Shown: positions 1-14,986 of the stretch, one piece after another
Layout: every line of letters begins with the position of its first letter
Position numbering within the stretch: position 1 is the stretch's first letter
From: Oscillospiraceae bacterium
Lineage (GTDB): Bacteria; Bacillota_A; Clostridia; Oscillospirales; Oscillospiraceae
Direction: 5' to 3'
NCBI GenBank assembly: GCA_902789835.1
Contig: CADAPN010000035.1
Span: 1 to 14,986, forward strand
Length of the DNA: 14,986 nt
Program-made: the position numbers and the translations under genes
The notes under the pieces: generated by a model
The model's database searches: none
Told to the model about the DNA's origin: nothing
What the model saw: the letters and a program-made list of their open reading frames with translations, nothing else

Positions 1-59
1 GTTGCCCAGGATGGTCAGCAGTTCAGACAGATCTTCTTCTGTGACCTTGTCCTTCTCCG
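1..59. repeat. Terminal direct repeat, left copy (identical to 14928-14986)
   Basis: The first 59 bases equal the last 59 bases of the window without mismatch. The repeat lies inside the S41 peptidase coding sequence, and joining it keeps the reading frame open. Such an exact end overlap is what a circular contig from a k-mer assembler shows. A true duplication of the S41 gene would look the same. Confidence 0.97.
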
Positions 60-1141: not shown

Positions 1142-1203
1142 AGCTTCCTGTTTCCTCACTTTTATGATGCTTTCGGTTTTCTGCGCATCACGCCCGGCCT
1201 GCG

Positions 1204-1235
1204 CCGGGGACGGTTGTACGCACAGCCGCCCCCGG
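1204..1235 (-). ncRNA. Conserved strong hairpin in repeat copy A (possible structured leader or terminator)
   Basis: CCGGGGACGG at 1204-1213 faces CCGCCCCCGG at 1226-1235. Read as minus-strand RNA this gives ten consecutive pairs including one G-U wobble; read as plus-strand RNA the same position is an A-C mismatch. This fits a minus-strand transcript, like the genes. The 12-nt loop can add a 3-bp UGU/ACA inner stem. The same hairpin lies at 13144-13175. No U-tract follows, so it is not a standard intrinsic terminator. A role as 5' leader structure of the CPBP and NRPS mRNAs is inference. Confidence 0.5.
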
Positions 1236-1274
1236 TGGCCCGTGTCTCAGGATTTGCGGTTCTGACGAACACAA

Positions 1275-1319
1275 TCAGCGAATGCTGTTGATGGTATCGG
1301 TCAGGGCTGCGCGGTCATA
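1275..1319 (-). pseudogene. Remnant of an S41 peptidase gene: last 14 codons and stop
   Basis: The minus strand reads YDRAALTDTINSIR and then TGA, exactly the C-terminus of the S41 peptidase ending at 13224. Upstream of this point (1320 onward) the sequence is unrelated to S41. It is therefore either a truncated duplicate left by a rearrangement or a contig junction formed by assembly. The whole shared block (1261-1319) is exactly 59 nt, the same length as the overlap of the window ends. Confidence 0.75.
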
Positions 1320-1417: not shown

Positions 1418-3454
1418 TCAAAGCGGAAAAATCATCGTAAACAGGTTTTTCCCATCCTTCTGTTCATATTGAAAAGACGACACCGTCTGGCGGATCAGGT
1501 TCAGGCCCATACCGCCGTTGTCCATATGCTCGAATTGCTTCTCTGAAGCAATTTCCGCTGTTGGATCAAAGGGAATGCCGTTATCCACGAAGACGATCTC
1601 CAGCCCGTCCTCCCGCTTTTCGCAGGCAAAAGACAGCTCCGTTGCCCCGGAATAGTTGACGATGTTCGCAAGCGCTTCATCACAGGCAAGCAGCGCTTTT
1701 CTTGTCTTCTCCGTATTCCCCGCACAGGCAAAAACGGTCTCACGGATGATGTCAAAGGAAGACAGCGCTGCAGGAATCGGGCGGAACCCGTTCCGGGCGC
1801 CCTCCCGGGCACATTCATCCTGCTCTTCTTCGGTGCCGGGCTCATTTTCCTCATCCTCCTGACAGATCATGAGCACCGCGATGTCGTCAAAGGGCTCCAC
1901 CCCTTCACAGAATTTGCCCACCGCCCGGCTGATCCGCATCAGGACCTCCTCTGCCGGATTCTCTCCGCCGAGATTCTCTCCGGCGGGCTCCTCCTTCAGT
2001 GTTTCAAGCAGGCGGCCCATCCCAAATGCCTCTCTCCGGGCGTTGATGGCCTCCGTCAGTCCGTCCGTGTAGAGCAGCAATCCCTGCCCCACCCCGATCG
2101 TCAGAGCTTCGTCCACAACCTCCGCATCGTCAAACAGGCCGAGGGCGATCCCGTTATTCGGTTTCAGGATTCTCGGTTCTCCGCCCAGCAGGACCGGATA
2201 GTTATGCCCTGCGTTGGCATAGCGCATCTCTCCCGTCCGCAGATTCACCTCAGCGGCGAACACCGTGGCGAACAGCCCCTCCGGGTTCTGCAGCATCACT
2301 TCCACATTTGCCCGGTTCAGCGCCTCCGCCGGGCTGAGTCCTACCGCAAGTTTTTCCCGGACCATGGTTTTGACCAGGGCCATGAAAATCGCACCGGAGA
2401 TCCCCTTTCCGGATACATCTCCGATCATCAGACAGATGTTCCCGTCATCCCGCCGGAAGCAGTCATAAAAGTCCCCTCCCACGCTTTTTGCCGGGCGGGT
2501 CAGGGCGCTGATCCAGAAGGCGCCGATTTTCAGATTTTTTCTTTCCGGGACCATTCCGAATTGAATTCTGCCCGCAACATTCATCTGAACATCGGTTTCC
2601 AGACGCTCCTGTGTCAGTCTTTCAATGTTCCGGACATAGGTGCTGATATCCGCAGTCATTTTTTCAAATGAGACTGCAATTTCCTCAATCTCATCCCCGG
2701 AATGAATGTTCAGCGGCTCCGGCTGAACCGTACTGTTCTTTGCGAAGCTCTTCATCCGTTCTGAAATACTGCGGATCGGCTCTGCCACCCGGCGCCGCAG
2801 CAGGACGACAAGAATCAGGAAAGCAAGCGACAGCACAATGGTCGGAGTCAGGATGTCAGTCAGAAAGTCCTCGCGGATTTGGCTTATTTCCATCTCGAGC
2901 CCGTCGGTCATGCAGATGACTGCAATCTCTCCGATCTCTTTCGGCCTGTACACCGCACGCCAGGAGATCTGCTTCCTTTCTGCTGACCATTCTCCCCGCT
3001 GGATTTCATTGCTTCCCTCCAGAAAGGCATTTTCCGCTTCGACCTGAAAGAGACTCTGCGCCGGCACAGTAAGTTTTCCCTGCTCCATCAGGGTGTCCGC
3101 TTCCGGGTTTGACGCAACCTCCAGCAGAATCTCGCGGTGACCGGTCTTCGGCTCCAGGCTGTAGATAATGATATAGATCAGCCTGAATCCCCTGCATTGA
3201 TTGCGCACGGATTGTCGGATCATGGTGTAATCATCGCTGCCCTTATCTCCCCGCAGGGCTTCCAGACCATAATTGTCCAGTGTGCCGGAAATCATCTTGG
3301 CGCAGGCTTCCATGTTCTCCGTTTCAACTTCAATAATGGCATCCCGCGTGCTGTAATAATTCCACAGTGTGGAAACCACAACGGTCAGCAAAAGGAGTCC
3401 CAGAAACCATGCGCCGATCTGCTTGCTCAAGGATTTTTTCATTGCCGTTCCCAT
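1418..3454 (-). CDS. Membrane sensor PP2C-type phosphatase fused to RsbW/SpoIIAB-like kinase
   Basis: A 678-residue regulator of the partner-switching type. Visible parts: TM1 near 13-33, an extracytoplasmic sensor near 34-198 (Cache-like by position only), TM2 near 201-220, a HAMP segment near 217-275 with a helical linker, and a SpoIIE/RsbU phosphatase near 290-530. The phosphatase keeps GGDFYD (326-331), GDVSGKG (345-351), NAGHN (414-418), YTDG (462-465) and FDDI (522-525), so its metal-binding acids are intact. An acidic linker leads to a GHKL kinase domain near 560-678 with its N box (D592, E593, N597, N600), G1 box DNG (624-626) and G2 box GGMGLNL (647-653). The phosphatase would dephosphorylate, and the kinase phosphorylate, the STAS protein encoded 48 nt upstream. 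The ATG at 3454 has AAGGA six bases upstream. No sigma factor gene is in the window, so the final target is unknown. Confidence 0.9.
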   Translation of the reverse strand: MGTAMKKSLSKQIGAWFLGLLLLTVVVSTLWNYYSTRDAIIEVETENMEACAKMISGTLDNYGLEALRGDKGSDDYTMIRQSVRNQCRGFRLIYIIIYSLEPKTGHREILLEVASNPEADTLMEQGKLTVPAQSLFQVEAENAFLEGSNEIQRGEWSAERKQISWRAVYRPKEIGEIAVICMTDGLEMEISQIREDFLTDILTPTIVLSLAFLILVVLLRRRVAEPIRSISERMKSFAKNSTVQPEPLNIHSGDEIEEIAVSFEKMTADISTYVRNIERLTQERLETDVQMNVAGRIQFGMVPERKNLKIGAFWISALTRPAKSVGGDFYDCFRRDDGNICLMIGDVSGKGISGAIFMALVKTMVREKLAVGLSPAEALNRANVEVMLQNPEGLFATVFAAEVNLRTGEMRYANAGHNYPVLLGGEPRILKPNNGIALGLFDDAEVVDEALTIGVGQGLLLYTDGLTEAINARREAFGMGRLLETLKEEPAGENLGGENPAEEVLMRISRAVGKFCEGVEPFDDIAVLMICQEDEENEPGTEEEQDECAREGARNGFRPIPAALSSFDIIRETVFACAGNTEKTRKALLACDEALANIVNYSGATELSFACEKREDGLEIVFVDNGIPFDPTAEIASEKQFEHMDNGGMGLNLIRQTVSSFQYEQKDGKNLFTMIFPL

Positions 3455-3502
3455 TCCGATTCCTTTTCGTTACAGCCTGGTCATGCTGTCTGATCCCGGT
3501 TT

Positions 3503-3814
3503 TTATTCCTGCTTTCCGCTCTCCTCTTCAAAGTGCAGCTTCTTCGCCAAGCCGGTCATGGTCAGCACGTCCATCACCTCAGGCCGGACATTGCGCATCG
3601 TCATCTCCCCGTTCATCTTCTTATGCGCGGCGACAATCTGCCGCACCCCTGCGGAAGAGGTGTATTCCAGGTCCTGCAGATTCAGAATCAGATGCTCTGT
3701 CTCCGGTGCCAGTTCAGCGAGCGCTTTTTCAAAATCCGGTGCGCTCTGCGTATCCATCCATCCGTTCAGGCTTAGTTCGGTCGTACTGCCTGCTGTTTTC
3801 TTTTCAATCGTCAT
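3503..3814 (-). CDS. STAS-domain anti-sigma factor antagonist (SpoIIAA/RsbV-like)
   Basis: A 103-residue protein, the usual size for a single STAS domain. The phosphorylation site region is DLEYTSSAGVR (residues 48-58), where Ser53 or Ser54 matches the serine phosphorylated in SpoIIAA/RsbV. In this family the dephosphorylated form binds the anti-sigma kinase and frees a sigma factor; phosphorylation reverses this. The gene lies 90 nt after the NRPS stop and 48 nt before the phosphatase/kinase gene, all in one direction, so the three are probably one operon. The start has AGAGGAG about nine bases upstream. Phosphatase and kinase acting on it are both in the downstream protein. What the switch controls is not shown; the NRPS itself is the obvious candidate. 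Confidence 0.9.
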   Translation of the reverse strand: MTIEKKTAGSTTELSLNGWMDTQSAPDFEKALAELAPETEHLILNLQDLEYTSSAGVRQIVAAHKKMNGEMTMRNVRPEVMDVLTMTGLAKKLHFEEESGKQE

Positions 3815-3904
3815 GTTATCTGACTCCTCTCGTATGTTTCATTCCTCATATGCTCTGATCCGGCGGCAGCACCTGGCGGTACTGCCGCCGATCTGATGCC
3901 TGCT

Positions 3905-6900
3905 TCAATGATTGTCAAAAGACTCGTCAAAATACCCGAATCCGTTCAGCAGTCCCATAAAGCGCCGGAAATAGTCCCACGAGGTCATCGGCCAGGTAAA
4001 GCCCAGCCGGTAGAGCACCTGCAGCGTATAATCCCGATTCACTTCGATCAGTTTCCGCTTCCGCTCCCCTTCCCCGAAGGTATAAGCCATCAGGCTGGTG
4101 AGCAGCTCCGCCCTCTTCGGGTCGCTCAGGGCGCTGGCCAGGTCCTCCTCGTAGGCCTCCCGCTCAACAAAGTCAATCTGATGTCCCATGGCGCGCATCT
4201 CGCCCAGCACATGCCCCAGGGGGATGGTGTGATCACTGAGCACGTGGAAGACCCTGCACTTTTCCGGCGTTGCTGCCAGCTTCACCGTGGCCTCGGCCAC
4301 TGCATCAATGGGCGAAAACTCCTGAGGCTTGTTCAGATCGTCAAAGGGGGCGCACTTCAGCGCCGCATAGGCCCGCAGATTTCCCATGGCAGAGTTCGAG
4401 CTCGAGTTAATCTGGAATTCCCCGTCCCTGTGTCTGGCCGCAAGGTTGCCATAGCGCATGATCTTCGCGTGGAGGCCTTTCGTCGCGGCCGCTTCCAGAA
4501 TCTCCCGATCCGAAAGGAACTTGGAATAGACATACTTGTTGGAGAGGTCCTGGCCAAAGAACAGGGTGTGCTCGTCCGGGGTTTTCTCCGGCAGGGAATC
4601 CTGAAATGCCACTTCCTGGACACTCATGGTGGAGGCCTGGATGAACATGATCTGCTTTTCCAGGCAGAAGCTGATCAGGTTGCGCACGCCACCCACATTG
4701 ACCTTCTCAATGCTGTTGTCCGCAGCGAAGTGCTTGACGCTGGCCGCACAGTTGATGACGGTGTCGATCGGGGTCTCCAAAAGCCCCTTCAGCGCTTCAA
4801 CATTCGTGATGTCGCCCTCCACGGGGAGAATTCTGTTTCCGAAGAGCTCCTGTTCAGGAGACTCAAAGTAATACATCAAAAGCTCTTTGAGCCTGCCTTC
4901 TGCGCCGCGCTTTCCGCCCCGGACAAGACAATACACTTTGCTGTCGGTGTTCTCAAGCAGCTCATGGAGGACGTGGATCCCAAGATAGCCGGTGGCGCCG
5001 GTCAGCAGAACCGTGCCCAGCGCCCGGGGTTCGCCTTTCAGGAATTCCTCCAGGGTGTTCTCCCGCAGCAGCTCGTAGATCCGGGTATAGTCATAGGAGG
5101 CAGGATCGTCTGACGCAGCGGCCGTTTCTGCCGGGGCAGACCCCTCTGCCGGGGCGGTCTGAGCCTTCGGCGCTCCCGGAGCATCCGTCGCATCCGTCGC
5201 CTTCCGGGTTGCCGCTTCCCTCTGCTCAAACAGCTCCGCCAGCTGACGGGGGGTCGGGTGGGTAAACACATCGCCGAACACGACGGGATAGCCTGCCTTG
5301 CCCGCCTCGATGCTCACCTGGGTCACCAGCAGTGAAGTACCTCCCAGATCAAAGAAGCTCTCCGTTGCCAGAACATGATCCAGATTGAGGATTTTGCCGA
5401 AAATGTCGCAAAATGCCTTCTCCGCCTTGCTCCGCGCCTCTTCGCCTTCCCCGCGGAATACCTCCGGCGTGGGAAGATTTTTCATGTCCAGCTTGCCGTT
5501 GGGTGTGTAAGGCATCTTTTCCATCTGCATATATGCGGTGGGTACCATGTACGGTGTCAGCGTTTTTCCCATCGCCGCCTTCAGCTCCGGAATACCCACC
5601 TGCTGCTCGTTGGTAAACCAGGCGCAGATGTGCTCAATGCCGTTGATCTTCTCGATCTTAACCGCCGTCTCCTTCATGCCCGGCTGCTGGGCGAGAACCG
5701 TCTCTACCTCGCCCAGTTCGATCCGCAGGCCGCGAAGCTTGATCTGGTGGTCCTTCCGTCCGAGAATTTCAAGGAAGCCGTCAGGCATCCACCGTCCGTA
5801 ATCGCCGGACTTGTAGATGCGGTCATCCCGATAGGGGATGAAGCGCTCCTCCGTCATCTCCGGCAGTTCGTTGTATCCCAGGCCGACGCCCCAGCCGCCG
5901 ATCCACACCTCGCCCACCAGGCCGGCGGGCAGCAGATTTCCATCGGTGTCAACAATGTATTCCCCGACGCCGGGCGTGGGCCGGCCGAGGGAAACCGCTT
6001 CGTCATCTGCCAGATCATGCTCGTTGCAGGAAATGGTGACCTCTGAGGGTCCGTAGATGTTAAACTGATGCGGAACAAGTTCCTTGAGCGTGGTCATCAG
6101 CTTCTCCGGATACTTTTCCCCGCCGCAGATCGTCATCTTCACCTGCCGCTTCAGCACCTCGCAGAAGATTTCCGAGTTCAGCAAAGCCTGCATCCGGGAA
6201 GGCGTTCCGCTGATGACGTCTGCCTTCGTCTCTGTTATTCTCTCTGCCAGCAAATCCGGATCGTTGCACTCCGCCTCGTTGGCGAAATACAGCGTCATGC
6301 CGTGGCTCAGTGCAAGGCCGTATTCCATGACGGAGACGTCGAAGGACAGCGTCGTGATGGCGCAGTAGACCGTGCAGTTTGCCCGCAGCGTATTGATCAT
6401 TTCTTTCCCCGGCATATCCGCAAAATAGTGCGCAGCGTTTCGGTGCGTCAGCATGACGCCCTTCGGCCGGCCGGTGGAACCGGAGGTATAGATCATATAA
6501 GAGATGTTCTCCGGCCTCAGGTCCACACGCGGCTTCATGCTGTCGGTCTCCCGGAGAAGCTCTTCGATGTCAACCGCCGGTTTGCCCGCAAAGCGGGGCA
6601 GCATCTCACTGTCGGTGATGACAAACTGCGCCTGCGAATCCTCGATGACCATGTTGACCCGCTCAGCCGGATATGCCGGGTCAAAGGGAATATAGCCCAG
6701 GCCGGCCTTGCTGGCGCCGAAGAAGGCGATCAGCGCACGTGAGGTGCGCGGCAGCAGTACAAGCGCCTTTCCGCCGGGTTTCGCGCCCCGGCGGATCAGG
6801 GCGTTCGCCACTCTGTCCGTTATGGTGTCAAACTCCCGGTAGGTAAGGCTCCCGTCCTTTGCGATCACCGCGGTCCTGTCGGGATACCGGGCTGCCATTT

Positions 6901-9900
6901 TCTCCATCGGTGTAAAGAAGAAGGTGTCGTCCGGAATTTCAACCGTTTCCTCTTCTCTGCTGAGCTGCAGCACAAGCTTTTCTTCCGCCTCATCCAGCAG
7001 AGAGACACCCCGAAGCGGCTTTGTCCCATCTTCAGCAAAGCGCGCAACCACAACCGCAAGGAACCGGCCGATCTTCTCCGCAAGCTCACGCGAGTACTTC
7101 GCATCGTCATATTCGATTTCGATGGCCGGCGCGTCCCCGTCATCCACGATGCGGATGAACATCGGGAACTTCAGCAGGTCCGCCTCGCCTTCCTCCACGC
7201 CGGTCAAACCCGGAATTTCAGAGCGCTGAACAATCCCGCGCTGATAGGCGTACATCAGCTGCACCGAAAAGCCCCACTGTGAGGCAACTGCAGCAAAGGG
7301 ATAATTCTCGTGCGCAATCGCCTGCCGGTAATCTTCCGCCGTGTTCCGGATATAATCGTCGATATTTCCCCTGGAAAGCACAGATGACAGCGGCAGCGTG
7401 TTGACAAACATGCCGTAGGTATCAGAGAAGCGGACATCTGAGCGCCCCGAAGAGATGGTGGACAGGTAAACGCTGTCCGAATTTGTCAGTCTTGCGGCCG
7501 TATAATACAGCGCACTGAGGAAGAATGCCGCCTCTGACACGCCGGTGCGGCCGACAGCCCGTTCCACATCCGCCTGGGAAACCGGCGTGCGCACAATGGA
7601 TGCTTTTCCCGCCTGTTCCGTTTTCGGCAGATCCGGCGTGATCTGGGTCGGGGATTCATAGTTCTCAAAGAGCGCAGCAAAATAACTGTCGTACTCCTTC
7701 GCGCCATCCCCGCTCATCATCGCCTGCTGCGCCCGGGTAAAGTCGGCATAGTCCGCGGTCTCCTCCTGGACCTGCTGCCCTGAGAGTGCGTTCTTCAAAT
7801 CCCGCAGGAAAAGGTCCATCGTGAAACCATCGAAAATCAGATGGTGAAAGTCCGCGTGCAGGCAGACTCGCTTCTTCGTCCGCGTGACAGCAAAGGAAAA
7901 CAGCGGTCCGCGATTCAGACGGAACGCGTGAATAAACTCGCTCCGGAATTTCTGTTCCTCTTCCTCTGTCATCTCATGGACAGGAATCGCCACATCGTCT
8001 GTCTCATTGGCAACTGCCATCACCTTGCTGTCCACCATGTCAAAATGCACATGTGCCGAGGGGTGCGCCTTCATGACCAGGCGAACCGCCCGGATGAGTG
8101 CCTCAGGGTCCGTCTCCGGTGTGAAGCACAGGGTCACCGGCATGTTGTATGCCATATTCTCCGGGTTCTTCACACATTCCATATAGACGCCCATTTGGGC
8201 AGCACTGAGGGGAACCGGCTCCTGAAAGCCGATTCTTCGCTCCTTCTCTTCCGCTTTCTTTCCGCTTCCCTCGCCTTTCATCCAGGCGGACAGAATCCGG
8301 TTTTCAATATCCAGCAGACTGGCTCCTCTAAACTCCGATGTGGGGATGTTGACACCAAACTGCTTGTACAGCAGCGCAGAAAAACGGATGACGCCGATGC
8401 TTGTCAGCCCGGTCTGATCCAATGGCACAGTAAGCGAAAGCTTTCCGCTTCCGGTGATTTCCGCGACCGCCGCTTTCAGTTTTTCTTCCAGAACGTTGTC
8501 CGCGCGGCTTTCATCTTCCGCAGTCTCCGCGCCGCGTTCCGGCTTCGGCAGCGCCTTCCGGTTGACCTTCTGGTTCTGGTTCAGGGGAATCGCATCGATC
8601 TGCATTGTCACTGCCGGGATCATGTAGGCAGGTTTCTGTCCGCCGATAAAGCGGTTCAGCCCGTCGACATCCACCTTTCCATCCGACACCACGTAGGCAG
8701 CGATGAACTTTTCGCCTGTCGCCTCGTCCTCAAATGCCTGAACGGTGGCGTCGGATATTCCCGGAAACTCACGGATCACCTTCTCGACTTCCGAAAGCTC
8801 AATACGGTATCCCCGCACCTTCACCTGGCTATCGCCCCGACCCAGGAAATCATATGTTCCATCGGGAAGCAGACGAACCCTGTCGCCGGTGCGGTAAACC
8901 CGGTCATAGTCCTGTTCACTGCAGAAGGGATTGGGGATGAAGGCCTTCTCCGTCGCCTCCGGGCGGTTCAGATAGCCTCTCCCGACGCCCCGGCCTGCCA
9001 CCAGCAGCTCTCCGGGAACCAAGGGGGGCAGCCGACGCAGCCCCTCGTCCACCACATACAGCTTGTGGTTGCGCACAGCCGGTCCGATGGGAACCCGATC
9101 GTACAGTTTTTTCACCGCCATGCCGGTAACATAAACCGTTGTCTCCGTCGGTCCGTAATGGTTGCAGAACTCCGGGCCCTTCTCCCGTGGTTCCACAGGC
9201 ACCAGCTTTTCTCCGCCCACGACAAGATACCGAAGCGTCTTCACCTCCGCCAGGCTGTAGAACTGGCGTCCCACCTGGGTGGTAAAGACAGCATGGGTGA
9301 TCTCCATCCGGTTAAACCATTCCTCCAGCGCCGGCAGATCGAGCCGGATGTCTTCCTCGACGATATACAGGGCGGCGCCGCTGGTGAGCGTCGGGTAGAT
9401 GTCCATCAGGCACGCGTCAAAGCCATAGGACGCATACGCCGCAACCCTGGCGTTCCCGTCCAGCCCGAATTTTTCACGGTTCATGGCGCAGAAATTTGCA
9501 AGGTTCCGATGCTCCAGCATCACTCCCTTGGGCACACCGGTGGTTCCGGAGGTGTAAAGCAGGATAAACAGGTCCTCCGGTGCGGGATGGCCGCTAAGCT
9601 TTTCACAGGCCGGAAGCATGGGGATTTCCTTCGTCAGAAGCACCTTCCCCCTGTATTCCGCCACCCTGTCCAGAAGTGACTCGTCGGCGATCAGCAGTCT
9701 GCAGTCCGCATCCTTCATCATGAAATTCAGCCGTTCAGAAGGATAGTTGGGGTCCAGCGGCTGATAGGCCGCGCCGGCCTTCAGCACACCGAGGGACGCA
9801 ATTGCCATATACTCGCAGCGCGGAATCAGGACGGAAACCACATCCCCCTTCCCGATGCCCTCGCTGCGAAGACGGCCTGCAATCCGTTCGGAGATTTCAT

Positions 9901-12900
9901 CCGTCTGCCGATAAGTATAGCTCCTGTCCCGGAAGACGACTGCCGTCCGTTCCGGATCGCTTTCCACCGCCTGCCGAAACAGGGAGACCACGTCCGTAAC
10001 GGGGTAGGGTGCCTCCGTTTCATTCCAAGCGTCCATCTCGCTCTGCGTCCCGACTGTCGTCAGCGGAATCCCGCACAGCTTCTGTCCTTCTGACAGGCCC
10101 GCAACGATTGCGCCGTAGACCTCCGCCATGCGCCGAACCGTGTCCTCGCGGAATTTTTCTGCCGCGTACTCAAAGCGCAGGCAGTAATCCCCGTCCTGCT
10201 CTTTCGAAATGTGCAGGGTCAGCGATGCCATGGACTCCTCCGGGGTCAGAAATTCCATGGGAACGTGTCGTCCGTCCATCTCCACACCGGAGAACATCAT
10301 GCCATGATATACGAAGCAGTTGTCCGGGCGGACCCCGTATTCTCCCATCAGGCCCGCTAAATCTGCGCCGTCGTGTCCCATCAGCGTGTGGAAGCGTTCC
10401 TGAACGTCCTTTACAAAGTCCCTGCCGGTGCAGCTGTCGTCCACGCGCAGGAATACCGGCAGGCTATGCACCATCATGCCCACCGTCCCTGCCAGCGCCG
10501 GGTCATGCCGTCCGTTCTCTCCGGCAAAGAAGAGAATCTCCTTCTGCCCGCAGAACATCCTCAGCAGGTATGCGTATGCCGCCATGAAGAGGCTGCCCTC
10601 CGTGAGGCCATCCACAGCAAGGCCGTCCGCAAGGTCCGCCTTCGTCCCCTGCCTGACTTCAGAAAGGCTCGTGATATAGACGCCGGCTTTCCCCTTCTTC
10701 TCCTCCAGGGACGGGTCGTCGTCCGTCCAGAGTGCGGTCTCGCCATCCACCTCGTCCAGCATCTTTCGGAACACTTCCGTGTCCGCTTTTTCCTGCTCCG
10801 GATGCTCTGCCTCATAAAGCGCCAGAGCAAAACTGCTGAGCTCTTCTCCCTGCGCCTCTCCGCCGTTGTATGCGGCGGCAATGCCTTGAGAAAGCAGGGA
10901 CAGGGATGTGCCGTCCGCGACGATATGGTGCACGCAGCAGACCAGATAAAGCCCCTCCGGCGTGTGGAAAAGCTTTGCCCGGCAGAGCGGTCCCTCTTCC
11001 AGTGCAAAGGGCGCGCTCAGTTCCCGTGCGACGGATTCCCGATCCCGCTGATCGGTCTCTCCTTCCTCCACTGCAATCCCATTGTTATTCAGCGGCACCA
11101 GACTCGGCACTCCGTCCACATTCCGTGCGGCAGTGTTCAGGACGGGATACCGGTTCAGCGTCACCTCGGCCGCACGCAGAAGTCTTCCTGCATCCGGCGC
11201 CGTCTCTTCAGGCAGGAACAGTCCAAAGGTGTTGTTATAGGCGGTCTCCCGTCCGGGCATCTGCCCGTCCAGGTATACGCTCATCTGCGCCTTTGTCAGA
11301 GGATAACTCGCAGCCTCGCGGCCACGGTATTCCGTCAGCGCCGAAGCGGCGTCTCCCTTTTCGGCAAGTGCCCGGGGCGTGGTGGCTTCAAAGAGGTCCC
11401 GCGAAGTCCGTTCGATGCCCGCTTTGCGCAGCTCTTTCTGCAGGATCATCAGCTTGATGGAGTCGCCGCCCAGCAAGAAGAAATCGTCGTCCAGGCCGAT
11501 CTCCCTGATCCCCAGCGTGTTCTCGTATGCCGCTGTGATCTTCCTCTGCCGTTCGTTTTCCGGTGCTGCATATGCCGCCCGGCGGCGTACCGTCTCCGGG
11601 CGGGGCAGCGCGCCGCGGTCCAGCTTCCCGTTCGCGTTGACAGGGAATTTCTCCAACCGGATGAATGCCGCGGGAATCATGTATTCCGGCAGGCTGCTTT
11701 TCAGTGTTTCCCGGATTCCCTTTTCATCCCAGTTTTCGCCGCCGATATAATAGGCTGCCAGCATAACCTGCCCGCCGGCGTCTGTGAAATCCCGTACCAC
11801 CGCGTCCCGTACGCCGTCCAGGCGCCGGATCTCCGCCTCGATCTCCCCGGGTTCCACGCGCTGGCCGTTGATTTTCACCATCCAGTCCTTCCGGTTCAGG
11901 TATACAAAGTTTCCGTCCGGCAGTCTCTTTCCAAGGTCGCCTGTGTGCAGCAGGGTTTCATACCCGTCTTCTGAACGGAAGGGATTGGGGACAAACGTGG
12001 CAGCGCTCTGCTCCGGTTTGTTCAGGTATTCCCGTCCCAGGTGTCCCGCCACGCAGATTTCGCCCTCGTCTGCCCTCTTTCCCTCCTCGTCAAGCAGGTA
12101 AAGCTGTACCCCGCACAGGGGCTTCCCGATCGGGGTGTTGTCATAGCAGCGTCTGACCTCAAAGCGTGTGACGGCAGAAAGTGTCTCTGTCATTCCGTAG
12201 CAGTTTACAAGCAGGAATCCCTTCGGTTCAATCCCCGTGAGGCGCTCGCTCCCGGTGAACACCGTGCGCAGACTGCTTCCTTTTTTCCGAAAATAGCGGA
12301 GCACCTTCGGTGGGATATACAGCACCGTGATCCCCTGCTCATCAATAAAGGATGCCAGTCCCTCCGGATCAGCGCGCAGTGCATCCGGTACAATCACGGT
12401 CGTAACCCCGTGAGCAAGGCAGGAAAGGCCACCCGCGCCAACAATGAAAAACAGCGGCGCGTTGAACCCGAACACATCTTCTTCCCGGAACGCCAGTACT
12501 TCGCCATGACGGCGCACAAATTCTCTCAGGCTAAGGTAGTCATGCACAACGCCCTTGGGGCTTCCGGTCGACCCGGACGTGTAGGCGATCAGAGCGCGGT
12601 CTTCGGGAGCACGCTCCACGGCTTTCTGCAGCGGCTCCTCCGCCTCCGCCTCCTGAAGGAACGCATCGTCCACCAGGATTTTCGCCCCGCAGTCCTCCCG
12701 GATCGTGTCGACCCGCTTCTGCGGATAATGGGTCGCCAGAGGCACATAAGCGCCTCCGGCCATGAGGATCCCCAGCATCGCCTCAATATATCCGATTCCC
12801 CGGGAAGCGGTGATGAGGACTGCATCACCCGGCTCCAGTCCCTCCCGAATCAGTTTTGCTGCAATCCGGCGTGCCTGCCTGTCAACCTCCTGAAAGCTGG

Positions 12901-12979
12901 CTTCCCTGCCGGCAAGGGGGTCGCGGATTGCCGCACGCTCGGGATGAAGCCGAACCTGTTCCTCAAACAGACGAATCAT
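3905..12979 (-). CDS. Three-module NRPS with terminal thioester reductase (A-T-C-A-T-C-A-T-R), predicted acyl-dipeptide aldehyde synthetase
   Basis: A 3024-residue single-chain synthetase. Domains by residue: A1 about 1-470 (YTSGSTG at 133), T1 (GGDS, Ser507), C1 about 555-985 (HHIVADG from His684), A2 about 990-1465 (YTSGTTG at 1142), T2 (GLTSI, Ser1527), C2 about 1588-2015 (HHLIFDG from His1712), A3 about 2025-2490 (YTSGSTG at 2164), T3 (GGTSL, Ser2549), an Ala/Pro/Thr-rich linker 2587-2630, and a reductase from about 2655 (GATGYLG at 2661; catalytic Tyr2816 and Lys2820). All catalytic residues are present; there is no epimerase or thioesterase. A1 has Asn173 (in FNAPLF) where amino-acid-activating domains have Asp, so it probably loads an acid without an alpha-amino group. 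A2 (Asp1188) and A3 (Asp2214) keep the Asp. NADPH-type reductive release should give a peptide aldehyde. I chose the ATG at 12979 (AAGGA seven bases upstream) over an in-frame TTG at 13042 that overlaps a promoter-like sequence. A phosphopantetheinyl transferase must be encoded elsewhere. Confidence 0.95.
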   Translation of the reverse strand: MIRLFEEQVRLHPERAAIRDPLAGREASFQEVDRQARRIAAKLIREGLEPGDAVLITASRGIGYIEAMLGILMAGGAYVPLATHYPQKRVDTIREDCGAKILVDDAFLQEAEAEEPLQKAVERAPEDRALIAYTSGSTGSPKGVVHDYLSLREFVRRHGEVLAFREEDVFGFNAPLFFIVGAGGLSCLAHGVTTVIVPDALRADPEGLASFIDEQGITVLYIPPKVLRYFRKKGSSLRTVFTGSERLTGIEPKGFLLVNCYGMTETLSAVTRFEVRRCYDNTPIGKPLCGVQLYLLDEEGKRADEGEICVAGHLGREYLNKPEQSAATFVPNPFRSEDGYETLLHTGDLGKRLPDGNFVYLNRKDWMVKINGQRVEPGEIEAEIRRLDGVRDAVVRDFTDAGGQVMLAAYYIGGENWDEKGIRETLKSSLPEYMIPAAFIRLEKFPVNANGKLDRGALPRPETVRRRAAYAAPENERQRKITAAYENTLGIREIGLDDDFFLLGGDSIKLMILQKELRKAGIERTSRDLFEATTPRALAEKGDAASALTEYRGREAASYPLTKAQMSVYLDGQMPGRETAYNNTFGLFLPEETAPDAGRLLRAAEVTLNRYPVLNTAARNVDGVPSLVPLNNNGIAVEEGETDQRDRESVARELSAPFALEEGPLCRAKLFHTPEGLYLVCCVHHIVADGTSLSLLSQGIAAAYNGGEAQGEELSSFALALYEAEHPEQEKADTEVFRKMLDEVDGETALWTDDDPSLEEKKGKAGVYITSLSEVRQGTKADLADGLAVDGLTEGSLFMAAYAYLLRMFCGQKEILFFAGENGRHDPALAGTVGMMVHSLPVFLRVDDSCTGRDFVKDVQERFHTLMGHDGADLAGLMGEYGVRPDNCFVYHGMMFSGVEMDGRHVPMEFLTPEESMASLTLHISKEQDGDYCLRFEYAAEKFREDTVRRMAEVYGAIVAGLSEGQKLCGIPLTTVGTQSEMDAWNETEAPYPVTDVVSLFRQAVESDPERTAVVFRDRSYTYRQTDEISERIAGRLRSEGIGKGDVVSVLIPRCEYMAIASLGVLKAGAAYQPLDPNYPSERLNFMMKDADCRLLIADESLLDRVAEYRGKVLLTKEIPMLPACEKLSGHPAPEDLFILLYTSGTTGVPKGVMLEHRNLANFCAMNREKFGLDGNARVAAYASYGFDACLMDIYPTLTSGAALYIVEEDIRLDLPALEEWFNRMEITHAVFTTQVGRQFYSLAEVKTLRYLVVGGEKLVPVEPREKGPEFCNHYGPTETTVYVTGMAVKKLYDRVPIGPAVRNHKLYVVDEGLRRLPPLVPGELLVAGRGVGRGYLNRPEATEKAFIPNPFCSEQDYDRVYRTGDRVRLLPDGTYDFLGRGDSQVKVRGYRIELSEVEKVIREFPGISDATVQAFEDEATGEKFIAAYVVSDGKVDVDGLNRFIGGQKPAYMIPAVTMQIDAIPLNQNQKVNRKALPKPERGAETAEDESRADNVLEEKLKAAVAEITGSGKLSLTVPLDQTGLTSIGVIRFSALLYKQFGVNIPTSEFRGASLLDIENRILSAWMKGEGSGKKAEEKERRIGFQEPVPLSAAQMGVYMECVKNPENMAYNMPVTLCFTPETDPEALIRAVRLVMKAHPSAHVHFDMVDSKVMAVANETDDVAIPVHEMTEEEEQKFRSEFIHAFRLNRGPLFSFAVTRTKKRVCLHADFHHLIFDGFTMDLFLRDLKNALSGQQVQEETADYADFTRAQQAMMSGDGAKEYDSYFAALFENYESPTQITPDLPKTEQAGKASIVRTPVSQADVERAVGRTGVSEAAFFLSALYYTAARLTNSDSVYLSTISSGRSDVRFSDTYGMFVNTLPLSSVLSRGNIDDYIRNTAEDYRQAIAHENYPFAAVASQWGFSVQLMYAYQRGIVQRSEIPGLTGVEEGEADLLKFPMFIRIVDDGDAPAIEIEYDDAKYSRELAEKIGRFLAVVVARFAEDGTKPLRGVSLLDEAEEKLVLQLSREEETVEIPDDTFFFTPMEKMAARYPDRTAVIAKDGSLTYREFDTITDRVANALIRRGAKPGGKALVLLPRTSRALIAFFGASKAGLGYIPFDPAYPAERVNMVIEDSQAQFVITDSEMLPRFAGKPAVDIEELLRETDSMKPRVDLRPENISYMIYTSGSTGRPKGVMLTHRNAAHYFADMPGKEMINTLRANCTVYCAITTLSFDVSVMEYGLALSHGMTLYFANEAECNDPDLLAERITETKADVISGTPSRMQALLNSEIFCEVLKRQVKMTICGGEKYPEKLMTTLKELVPHQFNIYGPSEVTISCNEHDLADDEAVSLGRPTPGVGEYIVDTDGNLLPAGLVGEVWIGGWGVGLGYNELPEMTEERFIPYRDDRIYKSGDYGRWMPDGFLEILGRKDHQIKLRGLRIELGEVETVLAQQPGMKETAVKIEKINGIEHICAWFTNEQQVGIPELKAAMGKTLTPYMVPTAYMQMEKMPYTPNGKLDMKNLPTPEVFRGEGEEARSKAEKAFCDIFGKILNLDHVLATESFFDLGGTSLLVTQVSIEAGKAGYPVVFGDVFTHPTPRQLAELFEQREAATRKATDATDAPGAPKAQTAPAEGSAPAETAAASDDPASYDYTRIYELLRENTLEEFLKGEPRALGTVLLTGATGYLGIHVLHELLENTDSKVYCLVRGGKRGAEGRLKELLMYYFESPEQELFGNRILPVEGDITNVEALKGLLETPIDTVINCAASVKHFAADNSIEKVNVGGVRNLISFCLEKQIMFIQASTMSVQEVAFQDSLPEKTPDEHTLFFGQDLSNKYVYSKFLSDREILEAAATKGLHAKIMRYGNLAARHRDGEFQINSSSNSAMGNLRAYAALKCAPFDDLNKPQEFSPIDAVAEATVKLAATPEKCRVFHVLSDHTIPLGHVLGEMRAMGHQIDFVEREAYEEDLASALSDPKRAELLTSLMAYTFGEGERKRKLIEVNRDYTLQVLYRLGFTWPMTSWDYFRRFMGLLNGFGYFDESFDNH
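5127..5198 (-). repeat. Short in-frame repeats coding the Ala/Pro/Thr-rich linker between T3 and reductase
   Basis: TCTGCCGGGGC occurs at 5127-5137 and again at 5145-5155 (18-nt period), and GCATCCGTC occurs twice in tandem at 5181-5198. All units are multiples of three, so length changes by slippage would keep the NRPS frame. The encoded stretch (around residues 2595-2620) is a disordered hinge that would let the last carrier domain reach the reductase. Confidence 0.7.
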
Positions 12980-13091: not shown

Positions 13092-13268
13092 TTCCTCACT
13101 TTTATGATGCTTTCGGTTTTCTGCGCATCACGCTTGGGATGCGCCGGGGACGGTTGTACGCACAGCCGCCCCCGGTGCTCCCGGGCCGGGGATTTGAATA
13201 CGCAGGCTGTCTGACGAACACAATCAGCGAATGCTGTTGATGGTATCGGTCAGGGCTGCGCGGTCATA
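13092..13268 (-). repeat. Repeat copy B: S41 3' end plus structured intergenic segment (matches 1152-1319)
   Basis: This is the counterpart of copy A, here attached to the complete S41 3' coding end (stop at 13224) and placed before the NRPS operon. Three blocks are identical to copy A and two blocks in between are not. Identity stops at 13092, where copy A runs on into the CPBP ribosome binding site and this copy into the AT-rich NRPS leader. The arrangement looks like two S41-intergenic units, one followed by CPBP and the other by the NRPS operon. Confidence 0.9.
13123..13191 (-). ncRNA. Structured RNA region in repeat copy B with competing stems
   Basis: It holds the same strong stem as copy A (13144-13153 with 13166-13175, one G-U pair on the minus strand) and two further possible stems: GCGCATC 13123-13129 with GATGCGC 13138-13144 (7 bp), and CCCCGG 13170-13175 with CCGGGG 13186-13191. 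The last would use the same bases as the strong stem, so the two exclude each other. GCATC within 13125-13129 can instead pair with GATGC just beyond 13105. Mutually exclusive stems ahead of a coding region are typical of switch-like leaders, but I recognise no riboswitch class. Confidence 0.35.
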
Positions 13269-14986
13269 GAAGGATTCCGGGAACTGGAGAGGAATGTCCG
13301 GCGCCGCGCCCTGGTCGATATCGTAGAAGGAGCCGTTTTTGGTGAAGGCCAGCCGCATGGGGCCGGAGATCTGGAAGCCGGAACCGGCTGCCGTGCTCAT
13401 GGGAAGGACGATACAGCTTCCGCCGGCGGAAGTGCGGCCGATCAGCGTCACCTGGTTGGAATTCTTGAAAATGTTGGGCACCAGGTTGCCGCAGGAGAAG
13501 CTGTTGGGCGAGATCAGGCAGAAGAGCTTTTTCTCCGTCAGGCCGCGGTCCTTCTCGTCAAACTTTCCGTCGAGGTTCAGGTCGACATTGTAGACGCCGG
13601 TGGCAAGCGCGCCGGACATGGTGTTTTTCAGGCTGGCATAGCCGTCGCCCAGGAAGGCGGAGATCGCATAGACCGCCGCATCGGAGTCACCGCCGCCGTT
13701 GCAGGAGAGATCCATCACGACATTTTCAACGGGGCTGTTCTCGCGCATAATCTGGGAATAGGCATAACTCAAAACGCCGATTGTGTCCACTGCGTCCGCC
13801 GTGGGTGCGGTCTTCTGATAATCCACATCTTCCGGAGCCGCGATAAATTCATCAAAAGTGATATAGGCCGTGTTGCCGATCTCTTCATACCCCGGCACAC
13901 CTTCGGGATAAACCTCCGCACGGGCTCTCAGATAAGCCAGTTTCTGCGTGATGGCGGCAAGAATGGTACGTCCGTAACCGATGTTCTTATCCAGATCGTC
14001 CTTGAGGTCATCCCGGCTGAAGGGAGACGGTGCGGTGAAGCCGCTGTGCCGGTCATCCAGATGCCGGGAAATGATGTAGTAAAGGGCAGAGTCCGCGGTA
14101 TTGGTGTCCGTGCCCATCAGAGCGTCGCGGGCGTTGGTCTGATCGACCAGGTCTTCAAAACTTGTGATGCCGTGGGCATCCTTCAGGCCGTAGAGATTGT
14201 CAAACACCAGGCACAGTTCGGCATAACTGAACTTGCCCGTGGCCTCGCTGATTTCCTTCTTCTCCACGTCATAATAGAGATCGGCGACGGCATCCTCATC
14301 AAGACCGCCGAATTCCAGGAAATACAGCGCCTCCCCGTTGTAGAACAGGTTCACGTACTTCAGCGCCAGCAGGAAATCGGTAAGGGTCTGCGCGGGAACA
14401 TAGACGGCGTTTTCGTCCGCCACGAGGTCGATCCCGTAAGCCCCGAGGTCCAGCACCACTTCGTCACCGTAGCGCTCGTAGGAGCTTCCGCTGACGCGGC
14501 TGAAGAGCCCCGTTTCCTCCTCCGAATGGGGGCTGTCGGAATCCAGCACGTCCAGCAGCACTCTGTCTGCCTCCGGAAGGACAAAAGCATCGTAATCAAC
14601 AAAGGTAATCGTGTCAGCGGCACAGTCAACCGTCATGGTGTAGGGGTCGCCGTCCGTCCGCGTGAGCGTGCCGGTCTCTCCATCCTTGGAAAAGCTCAGA
14701 CCGAAGGTGATGTTCTGGTCCTTATTGATATATTCCTTCATCAGATAGGTCATCAGCTCGCCCCAGTCTTCGAGCGACAGATACGGTACATCCGAATCGC
14801 CGACAAAGTAGACCGGCTGCGTGCGGGTATCATCCACGCCGTACAGATAGAAGGTCATGTCCTTTGAAGTGATCTCCTGCTTCGCGTCGGCATCTGACAG
14901 ACCGGTGCCGATCTCTTCAGCAATACGGTTGCCCAGGATGGTCAGCAGTTCAGACAGATCTTCTTCTGTGACCTTGTCCTTCTCCG
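13224..14986 (-). CDS. Secreted S41-family serine peptidase (5' end cut by window edge; completes with 1-177)
   Basis: Residue numbers refer to the joined 626-residue protein. After the signal peptide comes a region starting VPYLSLEDW (about 104-112) that resembles a copper-amine-oxidase-N/stalk-type fold, inferred only. The catalytic part shows LDDRHSGF (His353, the S41 LxDxH motif), DLSCNGGGDS (around 465-473, the usual Gly-rich strand) and SPNSFSCGN with the likely nucleophile Ser537. There is no Lys at +25 from the Ser, so this is not a CtpA-type Ser-Lys processing protease but closer to the His/Ser tricorn/IRBP-like group. A Ca-binding-type loop DLNLDGKFDEKD (508-519) is inserted between the Gly-rich strand and the nucleophile. 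The stop lies in repeat copy B, about 245 nt before the NRPS ATG. The frame is open to the right edge and continues into 1-177 if circular. Substrate unknown. Confidence 0.88.
   Translation of the reverse strand, partial: EKDKVTEEDLSELLTILGNRIAEEIGTGLSDADAKQEITSKDMTFYLYGVDDTRTQPVYFVGDSDVPYLSLEDWGELMTYLMKEYINKDQNITFGLSFSKDGETGTLTRTDGDPYTMTVDCAADTITFVDYDAFVLPEADRVLLDVLDSDSPHSEEETGLFSRVSGSSYERYGDEVVLDLGAYGIDLVADENAVYVPAQTLTDFLLALKYVNLFYNGEALYFLEFGGLDEDAVADLYYDVEKKEISEATGKFSYAELCLVFDNLYGLKDAHGITSFEDLVDQTNARDALMGTDTNTADSALYYIISRHLDDRHSGFTAPSPFSRDDLKDDLDKNIGYGRTILAAITQKLAYLRARAEVYPEGVPGYEEIGNTAYITFDEFIAAPEDVDYQKTAPTADAVDTIGVLSYAYSQIMRENSPVENVVMDLSCNGGGDSDAAVYAISAFLGDGYASLKNTMSGALATGVYNVDLNLDGKFDEKDRGLTEKKLFCLISPNSFSCGNLVPNIFKNSNQVTLIGRTSAGGSCIVLPMSTAAGSGFQISGPMRLAFTKNGSFYDIDQGAAPDIPLQFPESFYDRAALTDTINSIR
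14928..14986. repeat. Terminal direct repeat, right copy (identical to 1-59)
   Basis: This is the exact 59-base counterpart of the window start, in the same orientation, within the S41 coding frame. It gives a unit length of 14,927 bp if the window is circular. Confidence 0.97.

What the first reader, a model, noticed from the sequence alone, without database searches (positions are those of the whole stretch)
3905..12979. Predicted N-acyl dipeptide aldehyde synthetase with an acid-loading first module
The domain order A-T-C-A-T-C-A-T-R with a complete reductase predicts release of an aldehyde. A1 has Asn (residue 173, in FNAPLF) at the position where amino-acid-activating domains carry the Asp that holds the alpha-amino group; aryl-acid-activating domains such as DhbE/EntE also carry Asn there. 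The first unit is thus probably an acyl or aryl acid that caps two amino acids. Reductase-terminated NRPSs of gut clostridia are known to give peptide aldehydes or pyrazinones that inhibit proteases; an N-capped chain cannot form the pyrazinone, so the free aldehyde would persist.
Basis: partly seen in the sequence, partly recalled or inferred. Interest (0 to 1): 0.75.

Follow-up and report, generated by a model that had tools for sequence, protein, structure and literature searches.

The report
Capped dipeptide-aldehyde synthetase with regulatory switch
A gut-type bacterium carries a three-module peptide-making enzyme whose first module appears to load a plain acid instead of an amino acid, so it probably makes a capped dipeptide aldehyde of the protease-inhibitor kind, and relatives of this enzyme often sit beside a protein-switch module that includes an exporter fused to a kinase-like domain.

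Summary
The 3024-residue NRPS is real (3905-12979, minus strand): A-T-C-A-T-C-A-T-R, key motifs intact. Asn173 is not at the amino-binding position: alignments with the protein's own A2/A3, EntF and EntE, and the AlphaFold model, put Ile179 there. The evidence is family-wide. Of 121 first A domains scanned, 118 lack Asp235 and the same 118 lack the Pro of YGPTE; 265 of 265 later A domains have the Asp, 264 the Pro. Forty sampled first A domains form one clade (support 0.997) with EntE outside. So A1 looks like an amino-acid-type domain turned to acid loading, not a DhbE-type aryl ligase. The acid is unknown. N-acyl dipeptide aldehydes from gut NRPSs are already known (N-octanoyl-Met-Phe-H, ruminopeptin). 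Not found in print with limited searches is the setting: STAS and SpoIIE-phosphatase/HATPase genes follow the NRPS, and many relatives add a MATE exporter fused to an RsbW-like domain. In 22 of 25 genomes that I picked, SpoIIE or this MATE type lies within 13 kb on the same strand (expected 0.7 and 0.2). A partner switch controlling peptide-aldehyde production or export is the boldest reading left.

The parts
3905..12979 (-). NRPS, 3024 aa, A-T-C-A-T-C-A-T-R
   Evidence: ORF, Pfam, AAGGAA before ATG, motifs
11543..12979 (-). A1, acid-type adenylation domain; code at GrsA positions IVGYFGCSAK
   Evidence: AlphaFold model mean pLDDT 85; close folds LgrA, Txo1, GrsA A domains; TIGR01733 267 bits, under its cut-off 317, while A2 and A3 pass it
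12443..12445 (-). Ile179, equivalent of Asp235 of GrsA
   Evidence: hhalign, MAFFT, start of helix 179-189 in model
12461..12463 (-).
12191..12193 (-). Met263 in YGMTE, where amino-acid A domains have Pro (YGPTE)
11318..11557 (-). T1, carrier domain (LGGDS)
10013..11317 (-). C1, HHIVADG
8543..10000 (-). A2, amino-acid type, code DAMVVGHVYK (substrate not assigned)
8273..8515 (-). T2, carrier domain (LTSIG)
6953..8245 (-). C2, HHLIFDG
5483..6952 (-). A3, amino-acid type, code DVMRIGIISK (substrate not assigned)
5243..5485 (-). T3, carrier domain (LGGTS)
3908..5125 (-). R, thioester reductase domain, NAD(P)H motif GATGYLG and YVYSK
3503..3814 (-). STAS protein (anti-sigma antagonist type), 90 bp after the NRPS
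   Evidence: PF01740 and TIGR00377; Ser in TSSAG, the second Ser present in 46 of 46 STAS hits of the loci scanned, window included; its role as phospho-acceptor is recalled from SpoIIAA/RsbV
1418..3454 (-). Membrane sensor with HAMP, SpoIIE phosphatase and HATPase_c_2 (RsbW-like) domains, 48 bp after the STAS gene
   Evidence: phosphatase and ATPase motifs and two hydrophobic stretches present

Best explanation
The enzyme is an assembly line for an N-capped dipeptide aldehyde. A1 activates a carboxylic acid without an alpha-amino group and loads it on T1; C1 joins it to the amino acid of module 2; C2 adds the amino acid of module 3; R cleaves the thioester with NAD(P)H and frees an aldehyde. 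With its N-terminus capped, the product cannot close to a pyrazinone and stays an electrophile fit to trap serine or cysteine proteases. The adjacent STAS and SpoIIE/HATPase genes form a phosphorylation partner switch that controls the pathway, by transcription or export. Shown: domain order, motifs, loss of the amino-binding Asp, family-wide conservation, gene order. Inferred: the acid (fatty, branched-chain, phenylpropanoid or alpha-keto), aldehyde release without further reduction, protease targets, that the neighbours form one operon, and what the switch controls.
For: Domains and motifs. First A domain non-Asp at 235 in 118 of 121 (V54 I43 A17 S2 G2) and non-Pro in the A5 motif in the same 118; 265 of 265 later A domains have Asp and 264 have Pro, one has a gap. 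The three exceptions are two N-truncated proteins in which the scan counted A2 first, and one unrelated NRPS. Forty sampled first A domains form one clade, support 0.997. Precedents: N-octanoyl-Met-Phe-H from a Clostridium NRPS cluster, and ruminopeptin, an N-acylated Leu-Glu aldehyde (PMC8518294 passages; PMC12327764 passages). Neighbouring genes.
Against: Loss of Asp235 is not proof: PMC11253843 reports Val at this position in McyG, crystallised as a Phe-activating domain (passages). No product, assay or expression data. The A1 pocket codes vary widely in the family, so the acid cannot be read off. Some reductase domains go on to the alcohol (recalled); motifs do not exclude it. The window has no MATE gene in view, and in G001 no MATE-HATPase lies near this NRPS.
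Confidence: 0.74

Rival explanations
1. A1 is an alpha-keto-acid (or alpha-hydroxy-acid) domain of the StsA kind, so the cap is an alpha-keto acyl group.
For: Window A1 has both marks that PMC11253843 gives for StsA: Ile at the 235 position and Met in place of the conserved Pro of YGPTE.
Against: No ketoreductase hit in or beside A1. The Pro position varies in the family (M39 L26 C14 Q13 A10 S9 T6 I1 of 118), so Met may only mark acid loading in general; FadD, a CoA ligase, has YGLTE there.
Confidence: 0.2
2. A1 is an aryl-acid domain (DhbE/EntE kind) and the cap is a benzoyl-type group.
For: N-x-P-L in FNAPLF looks like the Asn region of DhbE (recalled letters); the pocket lacks Asp.
Against: Asn173 is not at the pocket position; the A5 motif differs from the aryl motif; EntE is outside the clade.
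Confidence: 0.06
3. A1 still activates a hydrophobic amino acid without the Asp, as reported for McyG, and the product is a tripeptide aldehyde.
For: McyG has Val at the 235 position and was crystallised as a Phe-activating domain (PMC11253843 passages); the A1 fold is closest to amino-acid A domains.
Against: The loss is shared by the 118 non-Asp first A domains and coupled to loss of the A5 Pro, seen in none of 265 later domains (one of them has a gap at the Pro).
Confidence: 0.1
4. The STAS and SpoIIE genes are chance neighbours or a general stress switch unrelated to the NRPS.
For: SpoIIE genes are common in these genomes (119 in 25, summed); in 3 of 25 genomes neither SpoIIE nor MATE-HATPase is near, and 13 of 47 well-flanked loci have none of the three within 6 kb.
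Against: Same-strand SpoIIE within 13 kb in 18 of 25 against 0.67 expected, MATE of this type in 19 of 25 against 0.23 (one of the 19, G311, shows no HATPase domain); gene order differs between lineages while the parts recur.
Confidence: 0.15

Closest known systems
Gut-bacterial peptide-aldehyde NRPSs (47-cluster family; Guo et al. 2017, paper not held, known through passages of PMC12282076, PMC8518294, PMC12327764)
   Same: NRPS of gut bacteria, peptide aldehyde product; the terminal reductase is recalled
   Different: Sequences of the reference clusters were not available, so direct kinship was not tested; here the cap comes from a first A-T module with an acid-type A domain
Ruminopeptin (Ruminococcus bromii) and N-octanoyl-Met-Phe-H (BGC0001686)
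   Same: N-acylated dipeptide aldehyde as product class
   Different: Their loading architecture could not be read here; amino acids and acid of the window product are unassigned
StsA alpha-keto-acid A domain
   Same: Ile at the 235 position, Met at the YGPTE Pro position
   Different: No ketoreductase in the module; the window enzyme ends in a reductase and has no sign of being a depsipeptide synthetase
LgrA initiation module (linear gramicidin)
   Same: Closest solved structure to A1 by sequence and among the closest by fold
   Different: LgrA has a formylation domain (PDB titles) and takes L-Val; A1 here lacks the Asp and has no formylation domain
RsbU/RsbV/RsbW partner-switching modules
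   Same: STAS protein, SpoIIE-type phosphatase, HATPase_c_2 domain with motifs present
   Different: Lies beside an NRPS; in relatives an HATPase domain is fused to a MATE exporter; sigma factors were not searched for

Membership tests
Reductase-terminated gut peptide-aldehyde NRPS | NRPS modules ending in a thioester reductase with NAD(P)H and catalytic motifs | tested here: met
Reductase-terminated gut peptide-aldehyde NRPS | Relatives in gut or rumen Firmicutes | tested here: met
   80 loci listed of 206 confirmed, mostly uncultured Clostridia; where a title names a habitat it is rumen, gut or faeces (RUG read as rumen genomes, recalled)
Reductase-terminated gut peptide-aldehyde NRPS | Sequence kinship to the described clusters | not tested
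   Reference sequences and the 2017 paper not held
Reductase-terminated gut peptide-aldehyde NRPS | Aldehyde product | not testable with these tools
   Needs expression and trapping
Aryl-acid A domain (DhbE/EntE) | Asn at the 235 position | tested here: not met
   Ile179 there; EntE Asn aligns to Phe177 by sequence
Aryl-acid A domain (DhbE/EntE) | A5 motif QQVxFMAEGL | tested here: not met
   NCYGMTETL (motif from PMC11253843 passages)
Alpha-keto-acid A domain (StsA) | Hydrophobic residue at 235 and Met at the YGPTE Pro | tested here: met
Alpha-keto-acid A domain (StsA) | Ketoreductase in the module | tested here: not met
   No KR hit between A1 and C1
Alpha-amino-acid A domain | Asp235 | tested here: not met
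Alpha-amino-acid A domain | Lys517 | tested here: met
   Lys in 121 of 121 first A domains
Partner-switching module | STAS protein with conserved acceptor Ser | tested here: met
   Ser in 46 of 46 STAS hits; acceptor role recalled
Partner-switching module | PPM/SpoIIE phosphatase with metal motifs and RsbW-like ATPase | tested here: met
   GGDFYD, GDVSGKG, YTDG, DD; EALAN, DNG, GGMG
Partner-switching module | A cognate sigma factor or other target | not tested
   No search for sigma factors was made

The most novel reading that the evidence does not exclude
A large, gut- and rumen-wide family of capped peptide-aldehyde synthetases (2, 3 or 4 A domains) is controlled by its own phosphorylation partner switch, and the output is not a sigma factor but the exporter: a MATE pump with an RsbW-like, partly degenerate HATPase domain that is bound or released by the STAS protein, so that release of a protease inhibitor is gated by an outside signal sensed by the SpoIIE protein.
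Probability: 0.3. Interest if true: 0.78.

Novelty: new variant of a known kind. Interest (0 to 1): 0.56.

Why it matters
If right, many gut and rumen bacteria make capped peptide aldehydes, which cannot self-quench to pyrazinones and so are the stable protease-inhibiting form. The clade-wide A1 signature (no Asp235, no A5 Pro) gives a simple sequence rule to tell acid-loaded from amino-acid-loaded clusters. The recurrent partner switch with an exporter-kinase fusion would be a new way to control natural-product release, testable in named strains that carry it, such as Sporofaciens musculi WCA-9-b2 or Ruminococcus sp. FC2018.

Tried and rejected
Asn173 as pocket residue: rejected. Aryl-acid loading: rejected on motif and tree. 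Reading amino acids from the A2 and A3 codes: no match to the few codes seen in PMC11355689 passages; the PMC12283262 main text holds neither string, and its tables are supplementary and were not read. StsA-type keto acid as sole reading: kept as rival, since Met at the Pro position is not constant in the family. Circular plasmid or mobile element: the window ends share 59 identical bases, but matching sequence recurs in the nearest genome on contigs with repeated S41-like genes and the plasmid collection gave no match, so an assembly effect is likelier. Promoter and terminator scan of 3300-4000 and the Rfam scan gave nothing. Whether ruminopeptin or BGC0001686 share this A1: papers not held, sequences not identified. 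Searches for the operon link in print: listings only, showed no paper on it, nor did passages of PMC8256260 or the outline and abstract of PMC9137472; the library lacks most subscription papers, so absence is weak. In the fold comparison no aryl ligase and no StsA entry is among the 50 rows shown; that excludes nothing. Papers seen only as listings; passages of PMC11170972, PMC11448209 and PMC7804863 added nothing on this enzyme type beyond the count of dipeptide-aldehyde clusters in Lachnospiraceae.

Full report
What is there. Pfam finds three AMP-binding, two Condensation and three PP-binding domains and a C-terminal NAD_binding_4 reductase, i.e. A-T-C-A-T-C-A-T-R. Carrier serines, both HHxxxDG motifs, GATGYLG and YVYSK are present. 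A near-identical protein (P0001, two differences) stands for a cluster of 345 member sequences, and the nearest held genome, G001, has the locus at 99.7% over 11.9 kb.

The amino-binding position. The checks disagree. A MAFFT alignment with the protein's own A2 and A3, E. coli EntF, EntE and FadD puts Ile179 under the Asp, as does a larger one of 389 A domains. Profile-profile alignment pairs Ile179 with the Asp of A2/A3. Against EntE alone, the EntE Asn falls on Phe177; PMC11253843 warns that aryl domains are shifted here by a cis-proline (passages), and allowing for that shift the partner would be near Ile179, my inference. The AlphaFold model (mean pLDDT 85) has a strand at 169-172 and a helix starting at 179. 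Phe178 is invariant in 13 of 13 aligned relatives, while the Asn173 column is Asn in 28 of 121. No residue-by-residue structural alignment was available.

Acid loading nevertheless holds. In 121 proteins (the 120 listed, of 2776 matches, plus the window; P0001 and the window are nearly the same protein, so counted twice) the first A domain found has V54, I43, A17, S2, G2 or D3 at position 235; the 265 later A domains all have Asp. The Pro of YGPTE is lost in the 118 non-Asp first domains (M39 L26 C14 Q13 A10 S9 T6 I1) and kept in 264 of 265 later ones, one having a gap. The three exceptions are two N-truncated proteins whose remaining A1 pieces are of the acid type, and one unrelated NRPS. In a tree of 134 domains (39 sampled proteins of 120, the window, yardsticks and the exceptions), the 40 first A domains form one clade with support 0.997; EntE and FadD lie outside. 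Against PDB sequences and folds A1 is nearest to amino-acid A domains such as LgrA, Txo1 and GrsA. So an amino-acid-type A domain seems to have changed once to acid loading and was kept in a large family. Caution: PMC11253843 notes McyG with Val here, crystallised as a Phe-activating domain.

Which acid. Not settled. Window A1 has both marks given for the alpha-keto-acid domain StsA, Ile at 235 and Met at the Pro position (PMC11253843 passages), but no ketoreductase was found and the Pro position varies in the family. PMC10949194 passages say keto-acid domains typically keep the rest of the code of the matching amino acid; A1 codes here are diverse. Fatty acids have the best product precedent: N-octanoyl-Met-Phe-H from BGC0001686, and ruminopeptin as N-acylated Leu-Glu aldehyde (PMC8518294 passages). 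Whether those clusters use this A1 type I could not test.

The family. The 80 loci listed of 206 confirmed are mostly uncultured Clostridia, with a few Acholeplasmatales and Fibrobacter; habitats named in titles are rumen, gut and faeces. Forms with two A domains (about 1990 aa), three (about 3000) and four (about 4000) occur; L079 is A-T-C-A-T-R. Within the order of G001, 8 of 295 genomes match A1 at E 1e-60 or better; in the seven besides G001 the match fetched is either a domain with YGPTE or a frame in which my scan saw no such motif, so the three-module acid type is rare there.

The setting. Downstream of the NRPS, 90 bp on, lies a STAS protein, and 48 bp after it a membrane protein with HAMP, SpoIIE phosphatase and HATPase_c_2 domains, with the expected motifs. 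No promoter- or terminator-like site was found in 3300-4000. In relatives the neighbours recur: a MATE exporter fused to HATPase_c_2, SpoIIE-HATPase, STAS, and sometimes a CapA-like and an AMP-binding-like protein. Of 80 loci, 64 had an NRPS frame of at least 1900 aa and at least one flank of 2 kb; 16 were dropped. In the 47 with both flanks, same-strand neighbours within 6 kb were MATE-HATPase 32, STAS 29, SpoIIE 20, any of these 34; in the 17 with one flank 10, 6, 5 and 10. In 25 whole genomes (G001 and 24 that I picked, including several without such neighbours), SpoIIE lay within 13 kb on the same strand in 18 (0.67 expected if placed at random), a MATE matching the fusion over nearly its whole length in 19 (0.23 expected), either in 22. 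One of the 19 (G311, L039) shows only MatE in Pfam, leaving 18 of the fused kind; L018, counted as fused by phmmer, also shows only MatE in Pfam at 0.001. The expectation assumes uniform placement, and related genomes are not independent. The order of parts differs between lineages, which argues for function rather than plain descent. STAS has the second Ser in 46 of 46 hits; the MATE-linked HATPase (42 proteins) keeps the N and G1 boxes but shows no conserved GGxG. The fusion is a family: 119 of the 120 homologues listed (of 521 matches) carry both Pfam domains, with names such as ATP-binding protein or MATE family efflux transporter where a name is given. G001 has no MATE-HATPase beside this NRPS; its best match elsewhere shows only MatE in Pfam. 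It has a second locus with an A-T-C NRPS, a MATE, a STAS and a SpoIIE close together.

How it most likely works. A1 loads an acid, two amino acids are added, the reductase frees a capped dipeptide aldehyde; a membrane-sensed partner switch sets when it is made or let out. The chemistry follows from the anatomy; the acid, the amino acids, the aldehyde end state and the output of the switch are inferred.

Known or new. Capped dipeptide aldehydes from gut NRPSs are known, so the product class is not new. The family-wide A1 rule and the operon link I did not find in print (listings; passages of PMC8241843), but the key 2017 paper is not held and may describe either.

Noticed in passing
window 1-59 and 14928-14986: The two ends of the window are identical over 59 bases, so the contig looks circular; matching sequence recurs on contigs of the nearest genome that hold repeated S41-like genes, so this is probably an assembly effect.
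   Followed up: partly
window 1152-1319 and 13092-13268: A direct repeat of about 177 bases (87%) flanks the NRPS-STAS-SpoIIE block; the nearest genome has a different neighbour (an M13 peptidase) past SpoIIE, and its contigs end about 40 bases beyond each repeat copy.
   Followed up: partly
window 13224-14858: S41-type peptidase; the nearest genome carries several similar stretches on contigs C52, C69 and C70.
   Followed up: no
L120 2093-7071 (G001 contig C151): Second NRPS locus in the nearest genome: A-T-C protein, MATE, STAS, with a SpoIIE gene beside them.
   Followed up: partly
L079, L046, L051 and others: Two-A-domain members (L079: A-T-C-A-T-R) that should give capped single amino aldehydes, with MATE-HATPase, SpoIIE, CapA-like and STAS genes in a row.
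   Followed up: partly
G300 C84, G298 C9: Separate NRPS frames of about 1000 aa also lie next to MATE-HATPase-like and SpoIIE genes.
   Followed up: no
L012 5103-6473, L022, L023, L040, L030: A protein of about 456 aa, with weak AMP-binding similarity in L012, sits directly before the NRPS in these relatives.
   Followed up: no
L026, L033, L035: A DUF3089 protein ends within 16 bases of the NRPS frame in these relatives.
   Followed up: no
L017 20619-21368, L018 20700-21452: A triosephosphate-isomerase-family gene lies between the MATE gene and STAS.
   Followed up: no
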